This document shows positions 3,208 to 19,087 of a DNA stretch of 64,000 bases, piece after piece; the stretch's first letter is position 1, and each line of letters starts with the position of its first letter. A model generated the notes under the pieces. It searched no databases. It saw only the letters and a list, made by a program, of their open reading frames with translations, and was not told where the DNA came from. A program made the position numbers and the translations under genes. Source of the stretch: Acidaminococcus sp. (lineage in GTDB: Bacteria; Bacillota; Negativicutes; Acidaminococcales; Acidaminococcaceae); the NCBI GenBank assembly GCA_022482815.1, contig JAKVOM010000001.1:1818946-1882945 (forward strand), read 5' to 3'.

Positions 3208-3810
3208 TGCTAAAGCGGAGCTTTAGCGACTATATCCGTGCCTTCTTCGAGCGTGAGCGAGGAAGAAGGGGAACCGTAGTGGGCGTCGATTGCCTTGGCA
3301 ATCGCGCACACGACCGCGGTGGATATTCAGTTAGATAACAAGTAAGGGGGATTAGAAAGAATAAAAATAGCAGCACTCCTGAAAGTGGTCAAATCAAAGA
3401 TTTGACTCGATTCAATTAGGACGATTCGTAATCTTACCTATAGTACTTTTATAACCAGAGAAAGACTAAAAATTTAGTGAAAAAATAATAAGATGGTCAT
3501 CATCCCCCGCAAGCGGGCCCCCTTCCTCAATGTCGCGTAGCGACGTCGAGGAAGGTCCCTAAAGAATATACTGCAGCGATTTTTTATATTTTTAAGTCAA
3601 ACCGACGTCAGGAGGTTTGGCTACGTGGTACCTTCTTCTTTCACGACGCGTAGCGGCGTCGAAAGGAGAAGCGCTTGTGGTGGAGGGATAGCTTCTTTTA
3701 TGCTTTTAAAAAGTAAAACTCTGGTAGTGGTTTTGTTCGTTCAAGATAAAATTGCCTCGGCAATTTTATTTCCTGTGGCGGACGGCGGGGTGCGGACGAC
3801 GGAATGCGAA
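3208..3810. repeat. Composite intergenic repeat, copy A
   Basis: No gene seen. A chain of hairpin modules: GCTAAAGC/GCTTTAGC, a CCTTCTTCG/CGAGGAAGAAGG stem, a block ending GCGGTGGATATTCAGTTAG, AATCAAAGATTTGACT, CCCGCAAGCGGG, and CTTCCTC/GAGGAAG around a GTCGC core. The same blocks recur in the same order at 12226-12992 plus 14480-14560 and at 18345-19087. This copy lacks the ~300-bp hairpin block present in the other two, and its CCTTCCTC block is uninterrupted, which shows the empty site of the IS110 insertion in copy B. Confidence 0.75.
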
Positions 3811-6229: not shown

Positions 6230-6600
6230 CGTCGAGACCTCCTTTCAAGCCGCCATGCGGCTTCGAAAGGAGGAGAACCGCAGTCAGCACTGACGGTAGG
6301 AAGCGCTGACAAATGCGGTGGAGGATAGCTTCTTTTCCGTTCTTTAGAAAGGAGGGCGGGCCACGAAGTGGGGGAGGAAAGTAAGTTTAGGAGAACCGCT
6401 TGCGGTGGGTGTTCAGTCAGATAACAGGAATTGGTTCGACGAAGACGCTGTAAAATCCAAAGCAACACCCCAATCGGTGCAATAGAGACCCTCTTCGACG
6501 TCGCTGCGCGACATTGAAGAGGGGGAACCGCAGGAAGGCCCGATGGTATCGGGCCTTCCGGAAAGCGGTGGGTGATGACCCTTAATATTCTTTTAACCCT
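6230..6600. repeat. Dispersed hairpin modules
   Basis: No gene. CCTCCTTTC...GAAAGGAGG hairpin, a CAGTCAGC/GCTGAC block, GCGGTGGAGGATAGCTTC, a TATTCAGTCAGATAACAGG block, and then a second copy of the CCTCTTCGACG and GGAAGGCCCGATG hairpins seen at 4868-4985. It ends GCGGTGGGTGATGACCCTT, the intact version of the group II intron target. Confidence 0.65.
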
Positions 6601-12225: not shown

Positions 12226-12992
12226 TTTTGCTAAAGCGGAGCTTTAGCGACTATATCCGTGCCTTCTTCGAGCGCAGCGAGGAAGAAGGGGAACCGGAAC
12301 TGAGCGCCAACGATCCGCAAGCGCAGCGCCGCGGGAGTGAGGGGAGCCACTGACCCATTCAACATCCCATCTTCGCACATCTATGCCGTTCTCTCGTTGT
12401 CGACAAGGACTGGGCTTACGCCCGGTAAACCGGCGCCTTGTCTCCTAGAGAGAACGGACATATCTGCGTGAATCTGGAGATATTTCATTGAGTCAGTGGC
12501 TCCCCACGCCGCGAAGTTTCTCAGAAGCAGCGACGAGAAGGAGCTGCGTGAGCTTCCTATTCGGCCGAAGGCCGCGTTTTTTTATTATTGACGTCGATTG
12601 ACTTGGCAATCGCGCACACGACCGCGGTGGATATTCAGTTAGATAACAAGTAAGGGTAAATTAAAAAGACTTAAAACAGCAGCACTCCTGAAGGTGGTCA
12701 AATCAAAGATTTGACTCAATTAAATGAGGAAGATCCGTGATCTTACCAATTCCTGCGTTCTGACTGAATACCCACCACGGACGGAATGATTGATTGCATC
12801 AATCATTCCTGTGGTTCCTCCCTCTTAGTCGCGAAAAGCACGCGACCAAGAGGGCAATGTAGCTGCTGGAATATCCATTAGTACTTTTATAACCAGAGAA
12901 AGACTAAAAATTTAGTAAAAAAATAATAAGATGGTCATCATCCCCCGCAAGCGGGCCCCCTTCCTCAATGTCGCGCAGCGACGTCGAGGAAG
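12226..12992. repeat. Composite intergenic repeat, copy B (left part, cut by IS110)
   Basis: Same order of modules as copy A, but with a ~300-bp block (about 12295-12590) inserted after GGGGAACCG that contains the long hairpin at 12341-12505. The copy stops in its CTTCCTC/GAGGAAG hairpin at 12992 and resumes at 14480 on the other side of the IS element. No gene. Confidence 0.75.
12341..12505. repeat. Long imperfect hairpin element, member 3
   Basis: Perfect 14-bp ends GGGGAGCCACTGAC/GTCAGTGGCTCCCC, further pairing CCGTTCTCTC/GAGAGAACGG and GACAAGG/CCTTGTC, and apex CTTACGCCCGGTAAA. Confidence 0.8.
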
Positions 12993-13000
12993 ACTAACTA

Positions 13001-14245
13001 TCATATGTCAAGTGCAAATTTCTGTGAATCGGAGCTAGTGTTTATCTGCTTTTGAAGCATTAATTGAGCAGATGTTTTGTATGTATTTCCTGTTGTCTGA
13101 AGTGCATAAATTAACCGTACCAATTTTTTAACTGCATGAGAGATTGCTATGTAGTAATGCTTGCCTTCGTTTAGTTTCTTAGCTAAATATTCCTTGTAGG
13201 CTGGTTCGTACCGGCAGACGAATATCGCTGCGTTAAAGAGCGCAAATCGTAGATAACGTGACCCTCTTTTCTCCATGTGGGCGCTTCGACCTATCCCACT
13301 TCGACGTCCTGACTGGTTCCTGGACGGTGCAAGCCCGGCATAGGCTAGAACTTTGTCGGGAGAAGAGAACCTGGAAAAATCCCCGACTTCCGCTAAAATT
13401 GCAGCTCCTGTGACGGCACCAATCCCAGGAATTGTAAGCAAAGGTTCCGGATGCTCGCTCAGCAGCTCCTTTTCCTCAGCCTCGATTTTGCGAATTTCTT
13501 CATCATAGTCCTCAAGAATCCGGATGTTCGCCCGCAATTCATGTTCATTGCCCAGATTGTTGTGTTTACCGATAGATTTTTTTGCTTCGTCACGAATTTG
13601 TTCAGCCAAATCCTCATTTAAGCTGCCTCTGGATGCCTTGTGAATAATGTTTTTCAAGTGTTTCAAGTTGGCGTTTGCCAGCTCCTCGGGAGTAGGATAT
13701 TCCATGAATATAGCGTGAGCAGTAGCAGAATTCAGGTTCATATATTTTCCTAGTTCAGGGAAGTTGAGAACCACAAGCCGATCCACGTCTTGTTTAATCT
13801 TTGTTCTTGCCTGAACCATTCTGAACCGAGATCTGGTAAGTGACATGAGACGTTCATTGTGGTATTCTTTAGGAACGTAGGGTTTGAGATCCAAATCGGA
13901 CATGAACATACAGGCTATGAAATGAGCATCAATGCGATCGGTTTTAGTTTTGCGAAGGCTATGACTCTTTTTGTATTGATCTGTCAACATGGGATTGAAG
14001 ACATAAGTTGGTAGCCCGTTATTCAGCAGGAATCTGGTGATATTCTCGCTGTAAGGTCCGGTGGCTTCAAGCCCTACTTTTATGTTTTCTGCCGGTTGTT
14101 TGTAAGAGCATATCTGCTTCAGCAGAAAGTCAAAGCCCTCCCAATCATTGGTAATAGTAAATTGCTTGTACCTGGACTTATGCTCTGGGTCAAGGATGCA
14201 GCAGTCATGTTTGTCTTTGGACACATCAATTCCAACGTAGATCAT
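13001..14245 (-). CDS. IS110-family transposase (DEDD recombinase)
   Basis: 414 residues, full length. N-terminal RuvC-like DEDD domain: GIDVSKDKHD (Asp6), VGLEATGPY (Glu near 60), and KTKTDRIDA (Asp near 103-106). C-terminal Transposase_20 domain: LLTIPGIGAVTGAAILAEVGD, LAYAGLAPSRNQSG with the conserved Ser, and an RSAHMEKRGSRYLRFALF stretch. It has no visible disruption and should be active. The stop codon overlaps the subterminal inverted repeat of the element. The enzyme works with a structured bridge RNA made by the element. Confidence 0.95.
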   Translation of the reverse strand: MIYVGIDVSKDKHDCCILDPEHKSRYKQFTITNDWEGFDFLLKQICSYKQPAENIKVGLEATGPYSENITRFLLNNGLPTYVFNPMLTDQYKKSHSLRKTKTDRIDAHFIACMFMSDLDLKPYVPKEYHNERLMSLTRSRFRMVQARTKIKQDVDRLVVLNFPELGKYMNLNSATAHAIFMEYPTPEELANANLKHLKNIIHKASRGSLNEDLAEQIRDEAKKSIGKHNNLGNEHELRANIRILEDYDEEIRKIEAEEKELLSEHPEPLLTIPGIGAVTGAAILAEVGDFSRFSSPDKVLAYAGLAPSRNQSGRRSGIGRSAHMEKRGSRYLRFALFNAAIFVCRYEPAYKEYLAKKLNEGKHYYIAISHAVKKLVRLIYALQTTGNTYKTSAQLMLQKQINTSSDSQKFALDI

Positions 14246-14477
14246 AATATAAAACCTCCTAAAAAATATGATGCTGAAACCACAGACTCTCTGCCATGTA
14301 TCCTTGTTCTATATAAACCGTCTGGCGGTATCTAACTTATTAACATCGCTGCAAAGAGCTGTGGTTGGAGTCTTCTTCAAACCGTTAATCGGTAGGTCCC
14401 AAAACCAATCCACAGCATCTTTTACAGTGTAGCACTTTCCCCCAGAAGAGGGGTAAAGTCCCAATACATATGATACA
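14246..14477 (-). ncRNA. Candidate bridge RNA of the IS110 element
   Basis: The non-coding end upstream of the transposase, minus strand. One fold (14358-14416) has outer stem GCTGTGGATTGG/CCAACCACAGC, an internal loop TTTTGGGACCT / TTTGAAGAAGACT and apical hairpin ACCG-ATTAA-CGGT. GGGACCT in the 5' side of the loop is identical to the target just before the insertion, and GAAGAAG on the 3' side pairs with CTTCCTC just after it (one mismatch). A second, similar loop (about 14297-14337) has AGTTAG, found at one element end, and GATACA, complementary to the other end, around ACCG-CCAGA-CGGT. This is the architecture of target- and donor-binding loops known for IS621. Confidence 0.7.
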
Positions 14478-14479
14478 AG

Positions 14480-15060
14480 GTCCCTAAAGAATATACCGCA
14501 GCAATCTTTTTATATTTTTAAGGCAAACCGACGTCAGGAGGTTTGGCTACGGAGGACCTCCTTTCAAGCCGCTCCGCGGCTTCGAAAGGAGAACCGCTTG
14601 CGGTGGAGGGATAGCTTTTCTTCATAAAATCAAAATTTACGTTCCACTAAAAACTTATACTATCGATTTCACACCTCTTTTTTAATTGTTTCTGATGGAC
14701 TCTGAAGCAAGACAGGTGCAGGGACGCGAAGAACTGGGCTGAGGCCAGGAAGTCGGAACTGAGCGCCAACGATCCGCAAGCGCAGCGCCGCGGGAGTTAG
14801 GGGAGCCACTGACCCATTCAACATCCCATCTTCGCACATCTATGCCGTTCTCTCGTTGTCGACAAGGACTGGGCTTACGCCCGGTAAACCGGCGCCTTGT
14901 CTCCTGGAGAGAACGGACATATCTGCGTGAATCTGGAGATATTTCATTGAGTCAGTGGCTCCCCACGTCGCGAAGTTTCTCAGAAGCAGCGACGAAAAGG
15001 AGCTGCGTGAGCTTCCTATTCGGCCGAAGGCCGCGGTTTTGTTTATTTTTGCGATGGAGG
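14480..15060. repeat. Composite repeat copy B (right part) and a further hairpin block
   Basis: 14480-14620 continues the copy interrupted by IS110 (GTCCCTAAAG..., GCAAACCGACGTCAGGAGG, CTTTC/GAAAG hairpin, GCGGTGGAGGGATAGC). 14678-14752 is the start of the structured frame also seen at 20505; it breaks off at GAAGTCG, where a block identical in type to 12295-12590 begins and runs to about 15040. No gene. Confidence 0.65.
14800..14964. repeat. Long imperfect hairpin element, member 4
   Basis: Nearly identical to member 3, with the same 14-bp perfect ends and the same CGCCCGGTAAA apex. Confidence 0.8.
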
Positions 15061-18344: not shown

Positions 18345-19087
18345 TATTTTGCTAAAGCGGAGCTTTAGCGACTATATCCGTGCCTTCTTCGAGCGCAGCG
18401 AGGAAGAAGGGGAACCGGAACTGAGCGCCAACAATCCGCAAGCGCAGCGCCGCGGGAGTGAGGGGAGCCACTGACCCATTCAACATCCCATCTTCGCACA
18501 TCTATGCCGTTCTCTCGTAGTCGACAAGGACTGGGCTTACGCCCGGTAAACCGGCGCCTTGTCTCCTAGAGAGAACGGACATATCTGCGTGAATCTGGAG
18601 ATATTTCATTGAGTCAGTGGCTCCCCACGCCGCGAAGTTTCTCAGAAGCAGCGACGAGAAGGAGCTGCGTGAGCTTCCTATTCGGCCGAAGGCCGCGTTT
18701 TTTTATTATTGGCGTCGATTGACTTGGCAATCGCGCACACGACCGCGGTGGATATTCAGTTAGATAACAAGTAAGGGTAAATACGAAGTGTAAAAAAGCA
18801 GCACTTCTGAAAGTAGTCAAATTAGGACGATTCGTAATCGTACCTATAATACTTTTATAACCAGAGAAAGACTAAAAATTTAGTAAAAAAATAATAAGAT
18901 GGTCATCATCCCCCGCAAGCGGGCCCCCTTCCTCAATGTCGCGCAGCGACGTCGAGGAAGGTCCCTAAAGAATATACTGCAGTGATTTTTTATTTTTAAG
19001 GCAAACCGACGTCAGGAGGTTTGGCTACGGGGTCTTCTTTCACGCTGCATTGCAGCGTCGAAAGGAGAACCGCTTGCGGTGGGTGAC
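18345..19087. repeat. Composite intergenic repeat, copy C, ending at the group II introns
   Basis: Same module order as copy B including the long-hairpin block (18415-18710), with an intact GAGGAAGGTCCC junction at about 18955-18966. It continues into the CTTTC/GAAAG hairpin and GCGGTGGGTGAC, where the first intron begins. No gene. Confidence 0.75.
18462..18626. repeat. Long imperfect hairpin element, member 5
   Basis: Same perfect 14-bp ends and apex as members 3 and 4. Confidence 0.8.

What the first reader, a model, noticed from the sequence alone, without database searches (positions are those of the whole stretch)
12993..14479. IS110 element whose bridge RNA and guides can be read from the sequence
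The element sits in a dispersed repeat that is intact at two other places, so both its ends and its target are known. Its 232-bp upstream non-coding region folds on the minus strand into two loops of the same design. The first has outer stem GCTGTGGATTGG/CCAACCACAGC and apex ACCG-ATTAA-CGGT; its 5' side contains GGGACCT, identical to the target before the CT core, and its 3' side GAAGAAG pairs with CTTCCTC after the core. The second loop has AGTTAG and GATACA, matching the two element ends, around ACCG-CCAGA-CGGT. That is what is expected of target- and donor-binding loops described for IS621, in an element of a different host group.
Basis: partly seen in the sequence, partly recalled or inferred. 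Interest (0 to 1): 0.82.

Follow-up and report, generated by a model that had tools for sequence, protein, structure and literature searches.

The report
IS110 element with readable bridge RNA

Summary
Window 12993-14479 is a 1487-bp IS110-group insertion sequence on the minus strand (414-aa DEDD/Ser recombinase, 234-bp non-coding left end). It sits in a dispersed repeat that is intact at window 3540 and 18946, so the exact CT-core junction is known. The left end encodes two loops of the same design, with proposed guides where IS621 has them. Two corrections: GGGACCT already contains the core CT, and GAAGAAG has one mismatch to this target.

I tested the reading. The genome has 8 copies of this element (A) and 6 of a 70%-identical cousin (B). 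A and B share ends and donor loop but have different target loops, and they sit at correspondingly different targets. Across 52 to 56 distinct guides from relatives, guide-target matching far exceeds shuffled pairings (z about 15 for both guides), and donor guides change together with element ends. The circle junction rebuilds a TTGACA-17-TATCAT promoter.

It is a clear new member of a known kind (bridge-RNA/seekRNA IS110 elements). Transcription and activity are inferred, not shown. One side finding may be newer: in a cousin element two copies carry a stub consistent with insertion into their own guide DNA.

The parts
12993..14479 (-). whole IS110-group element (1487 bp including the left CT core)
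   Evidence: 8 copies at 97-100% identity in the same genome end at the same bases; intact target at two other window positions
13001..14245 (-). IS110 recombinase, 414 aa; D7, E60, D103, D106 and S312 align with IS621 D11, E60, D102, D105, S241
   Evidence: Pfam PF01548 and PF02371, NCBIfam NF033542 above cut-off; PDB hits ISCro4 and IS621; residues invariant in 4 relatives
14280..14419 (-). bridge RNA core: target-binding loop then donor-binding loop
   Evidence: covariance model R1 finds it upstream of tnp in relatives; pair counts
14435..14458 (-). 5' stem-loop CTTTACCCC/GGGGGAAAG of the RNA
   Evidence: sequence and fold; position as in IS621
14358..14416 (-). target-binding loop: outer stem GCTGTGGATTGG/CCAACCACAGC, apex ACCG-ATTAA-CGGT
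   Evidence: double changes in outer stem and apical stem
14394..14402 (-). left target guide TTGGGACCT (positions 1-9, last two = core)
   Evidence: matches left target; LTG z = 14.8 over 52 guides
14372..14378 (-). right target guide GAAGAAG, complementary to CTTCTTC (positions 8-14)
   Evidence: RTG z = 15.9 over 56 guides, signal ends at position 14
14370..14371 (-). putative handshake guide AC, pairs with donor T7 and G6
   Evidence: IS621 positions 81-82 in PMC11208158
14332..14337 (-). left donor guide AGTTAG, identical to the element's right end
   Evidence: six LDG/end variants all agree
14297..14302 (-). right donor guide GATACA, complementary to TGTATC at the element's left end
   Evidence: sequence
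14470..14475 (-). -10 half (TATCAT) of the circle-junction promoter
   Evidence: TTGAC[ACT]-17-TAT[ACT]AT in all 13 junctions listed
13006..13011 (-). -35 half (TTGACA) of the circle-junction promoter, in the right end
14466..14475 (-). sub-terminal inverted repeat, left copy TATCATATGT
   Evidence: sequence
12999..13008 (-). sub-terminal inverted repeat, right copy ACATATGATA
   Evidence: sequence
14480..14484 (-). left target GGGAC (flank)
12986..12992 (-). CT core plus right target TCCTC (flank)
3540..3558 (-). intact copy of the target repeat
18946..18964 (-). intact copy of the target repeat

Best explanation
An IS110-group insertion sequence that moves by bridge-RNA-guided recombination. 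Inferred steps: the element excises as a circle; joining its ends rebuilds a sigma-70 promoter (TTGACA in the right end, TATCAT in the left end, 17 bp apart) that transcribes the left end. The RNA folds into a 5' hairpin, a target-binding loop and a donor-binding loop. The target loop's 5' side (TTGGGACCT) pairs with the bottom strand of left target plus core, and its 3' side (GAAGAAG) with the top strand of core plus right target. The donor loop's AGTTAG and GATACA do the same for the circle junction. The DEDD/Ser recombinase exchanges strands at CT. Shown here: anatomy, target, covariation of guides with targets and of donor guide with ends, structure conservation, promoter architecture, catalytic residues. 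Not shown: transcription, RNA binding, excision, activity.
For: Exact empty sites. In one genome, A (8 copies) and B (6 copies) share ends and donor loop but differ in target loop and, accordingly, in target. Over 15 clusters LTG p about 5e-6, RTG p about 5e-5; over 52 and 56 unique guides z = 14.8 and 15.9, RTG signal stops at position 14. Donor guide and element end agree in six variants, AGTTAG, AGTTGG, AGTTTG, AGCTGG, AGTCAG, AGTTAA. 97.2% of structure cells paired, 8 pairs with double changes, against 28-46% when partners are slid. Junction promoter in every junction listed. Handshake bases agree with the IS621 scheme of PMC11208158. Recombinase family and residues.
Against: No expression data. 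Pairing at individual sites is imperfect: L001, 100% identical to the focal copy, sits at AAAAGAC|CT with 3 of 7 non-core left matches plus two wobbles. The donor pairing has a U.T mismatch at core position 9 and the LDG stops at position 6. Rfam has no family that matches.
Confidence: 0.95

Rival explanations
1. The target preference comes from protein-DNA recognition or from the palindromic repeat structure; guide-like matches are coincidence or remnants of past insertions.
For: A and B both insert at the foot of related hairpin repeats.
Against: Guide-target pairs across 52-56 unique guides beat every one of 100,000 permutations; relatives sit at many unlike targets; recombinase similarity does not explain position-by-position agreement that ends sharply at position 14.
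Confidence: 0.03
2. IS1111-type element (seekRNA downstream of tnp) rather than IS110-type.
For: 10-bp sub-terminal inverted repeat TATCATATGT/ACATATGATA, within the 7-17 bp range quoted for IS1111.
Against: Long non-coding end is upstream of tnp and the right end is only 8 bp beyond the stop; bottom-strand guide lies 5' of the top-strand guide, the IS110 order in PMC11187229.
Confidence: 0.02

Closest known systems
IS621 (IS110 group, E. coli) and its bridge RNA, PMC11208160 and PMC11208158
   Same: LE-encoded RNA, 5' hairpin then TBL then DBL, CT core, guides overlapping the core, junction-made sigma-70 promoter, DEDD + Ser recombinase, preference for dispersed REP-like repeats
   Different: recombinase about 85 aa longer with low identity; RTG pairing over positions 8-14 rather than the 4 nt of native IS621; LDG 6 nt; both apical stems the same ACCG/CGGT; 10-bp STIR instead of 3 bp; other host lineage
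ISEc21 / ISMch6 seekRNA (IS110 type), PMC11187229
   Same: upstream NCR, bottom-strand match 5' of top-strand match, promoter at the circle junction, natural redirection by a few guide changes
   Different: here two redirected lineages (A, B) coexist in one genome with 8 and 6 copies and identical ends
ISCro4 (PDB 9t56)
   Same: best sequence match among solved structures
   Different: only two domain stretches align

Membership tests
IS110 group (bridge-RNA elements) | RuvC-like DEDD domain plus Tnp domain with catalytic serine | tested here: met
   PF01548, PF02371, NF033542 above cut-off; residues aligned and invariant in relatives
IS110 group (bridge-RNA elements) | long non-coding left end upstream of tnp encoding a structured RNA with two guide loops | tested here: met
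IS110 group (bridge-RNA elements) | target guides match left target (bottom strand) and right target (top strand) around the core | tested here: met
IS110 group (bridge-RNA elements) | donor guides match the element's own ends | tested here: met
   core position 9 mismatched
IS110 group (bridge-RNA elements) | CT core at both ends, no long terminal inverted repeats | tested here: met
   sub-terminal repeat of 10 bp present
IS110 group (bridge-RNA elements) | promoter rebuilt at the circle junction | tested here: met
   sequence match only
IS110 group (bridge-RNA elements) | RNA is transcribed and binds the recombinase | not testable with these tools
   no RNA or binding data
IS1111 group | non-coding RNA region downstream of tnp | tested here: not met
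   right end extends 8 bp beyond tnp
IS1111 group | 7-17 bp sub-terminal inverted repeats | tested here: met
   TATCATATGT / ACATATGATA
TIGR-Tas | Tas protein with tandem guide array | tested here: not met
   NF052498 32.5 bits against cut-off 100; full-length IS110 recombinase and single RNA instead

The most novel reading that the evidence does not exclude
In a cousin lineage (group C, genus-mate genome G004) the guide DNA inside the element is itself a usable target: left guide 9/9 by definition, and the apical stem's ACC happens to satisfy the right guide CTAC. Copies have invaded a sister copy exactly at the core inside its left target guide, destroying its bridge RNA. This would be a self-limiting property that depends on the right guide.
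Probability: 0.5. Interest if true: 0.5.

Novelty: new member of a known kind. Interest (0 to 1): 0.35.

Why it matters
It gives a clean natural test of the bridge-RNA model outside E. coli: two multicopy sister elements in one genome that differ in target loop and target while sharing ends and donor loop. It adds evidence that natural right-target guides span seven positions in this lineage, and supplies native donor and target sets for a new recombinase. It does not change the known mechanism.

Tried and rejected
Rfam search: no relevant family. First genome-contig scan with the single protein found nothing; the alignment-based one worked. Mogibacterium loci L167-L171 with apparently nested bridge RNAs: the repeats abut runs of N and share identical flanks, so I treated them as assembly or masking effects; their right-guide rows dropped out because of the Ns. 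L059's right flank is doubtful and was left out of the right-guide tests. Simple tandem duplication for L041: disfavoured because the stub differs by one base from the full copy, which is identical over 1522 bp to L040; for L042 it cannot be excluded. An automatic search for donor guide/end pairs failed on too strict a pattern and was replaced, where two rows (L043, L058) caught wrong sites; their true ends are. No structure prediction was run because sequence matches to IS621 and ISCro4 sufficed.

Full report
WHAT IS THERE. The element lies on the minus strand at 12993-14479. It carries one gene, a 414-aa recombinase at 13001-14245, with Pfam DEDD_Tnp_IS110 and Transposase_20 and NCBIfam IS110 'RNA-guided transposase' above cut-off. 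The nearest solved structures by sequence are ISCro4 and IS621. D7, E60, D103, D106 and S312 align with the IS621 catalytic residues D11, E60, D102, D105, S241 named in PMC11208158 and are invariant in three relatives. The right end stops 8 bp past the gene; the left end is 234 bp.

TARGET. The genome holds eight copies of this element (group A, 97-100%) and six of a cousin with 70% identical protein (group B). All 14 start CTTGTATCATATG and end ATATGATAGTTAGT, with a CT on each side. The focal copy interrupts a dispersed repeat that is intact at window 3540-3558 and 18946-18964 (minus strand), where the sequence reads TTTAGGGAC|CT|TCCTCGACGTCGC without a break. A strict pattern for the A target has 36 intact matches in the genome. 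The B target has one perfect intact match, which lies in this window at 6257-6279, minus strand.

RNA. No Rfam family matches. The left ends of A, B and relatives C, D, E, F align well. The consensus has an outer stem and an apical stem for the first loop and a smaller set for the second, with compensatory changes such as ACCG/CGGT to ACCA/TGGT and ATCG/CGAT. A covariance model built on these finds the RNA in 21 of 380 genomes of the class, and gives 83 matches in 80 named loci fetched by protein from Clostridia-type and other gut bacteria, nearly all just upstream of the recombinase gene. On those 83 matches (71 distinct), 97.2% of cells pair and 8 pairs have double changes; sliding partners by 1-3 columns gives 28-46%. 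That alignment was fitted to the model, so the percentage leans towards it.

GUIDES. In IS621 the left target guide reads positions 1-9 of the target top strand, with core at 8-9; the right guide pairs from position 8 rightwards; handshake bases follow the right guide (PMC11208158). Here TTGGGACCT sits directly before the apical stem and GAAGAAG directly before a base A that would pair with donor T7. Within the genome, A and B have the same donor loop and ends but different target loops (GGGACCT/GAAGAAG, or AGGACCT/GAAGAAG in five A copies, against TGTCCTCCT/TATGGAG), and sit at (G/A)GAC|CT|(T/C)C-type and TTCTC|CT|CCTTTC-type targets respectively; L010 is the loosest B site. Over 15 clusters, non-core left-guide matches average 4.89 of 7 against 3.18 in permutations (p about 5e-6), and right-guide positions 10-14 (9 clusters) average 2.88 of 5 against 1.63 (p about 5e-5); lumping related clusters leaves p about 5e-6 and 2e-4. 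With the 80 further loci there are 52 and 56 unique guides: 5.21 of 7 against 3.21 (z 14.8) and 4.54 of 7 against 2.33 (z 15.9). Per position the right-guide excess is strong at 10-14 and absent at 15-16, which maps a 7-nt right guide (8-14) without assuming it. Related elements are not fully independent, so z-values are descriptive; 0 of 100,000 permutations reached the observed values.

DONOR LOOP. The left donor guide equals the element's right end in six variants: AGTTAG, AGTTGG (group C), AGTTTG, AGCTGG, AGTCAG, AGTTAA. GATACA is complementary to TGTATC at the focal left end. At core position 9 the donor loop does not pair.

PROMOTER. Joining the ends gives TTGACA-17-TATCAT for A and B, and TTGACT-17-TATAAT, TTGACT-17-TATTAT and similar in the others, as described for IS621 and ISEc21 (PMC11208160, PMC11187229). 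In the inserted form the -35 and -10 are about 1.5 kb apart, so expression of the RNA is expected mainly from the circle (inference).

VERDICT ON KIND. All testable features of the IS110 group are met. Against IS1111, the non-coding RNA lies upstream and the bottom-strand guide lies 5' of the top-strand guide, the IS110 order. A mild oddity is the 10-bp sub-terminal inverted repeat of A, longer than the 2-3 bp quoted for IS110 and within the IS1111 range. Natural redirection between close relatives was already reported for ISEc21/ISMch6 (PMC11187229). Hence: new member of a known kind.

SIDE FINDING. In genus-mate G004 two of 14 group C copies (L041, L042) are preceded by an 86-bp stub of a left end that stops exactly at the core inside its left guide. 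The C guide DNA GCGAACCCCT followed by ACCG satisfies both guides (left 9/9, right CTAC). In L041 the stub has GATTGG where the full copy has GATCGG, and the full copy is identical to L040, so a plain tandem duplication is unlikely. The rest of the invaded copy is absent, which I ascribe to later homologous recombination (inference). I found no mention of self-targeting in PMC11208160 by term search; that is weak evidence of novelty.

LIMITS. No expression or activity data; host not named by the tools; no ISfinder look-up possible.

Noticed in passing
L041:1167-2774 and L042:1167-2774 (genome G004): Partial left end cut at the core inside its own left target guide, followed by a full copy: looks like insertion of the element into a sister copy's guide DNA.
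   Followed up: partly
window 6257-6279 (-): The only perfect intact target of the sister element B in the whole genome lies in this window; four B copies already occupy sites with the same target sequence elsewhere.
   Followed up: partly
window 12295-12581 and 14754-15040: 287-nt direct repeat, 98% identical, flanking the element; part of a larger set of composite dispersed repeats in this genome.
   Followed up: no
window 14466-14475 and 12999-13008: 10-bp sub-terminal inverted repeat in an IS110-type element, of IS1111-like length.
   Followed up: no
L091 (genome position C1:1988366-1988485): Weak 15th bridge-RNA-like match in the own genome with a degenerate target loop, next to what looks like a decayed IS110 recombinase.
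   Followed up: no
L064 (genome G147): RNA-bearing left end joined to a right end about 240 bp away with most of the recombinase gene missing, a possible non-autonomous or decayed derivative.
   Followed up: no
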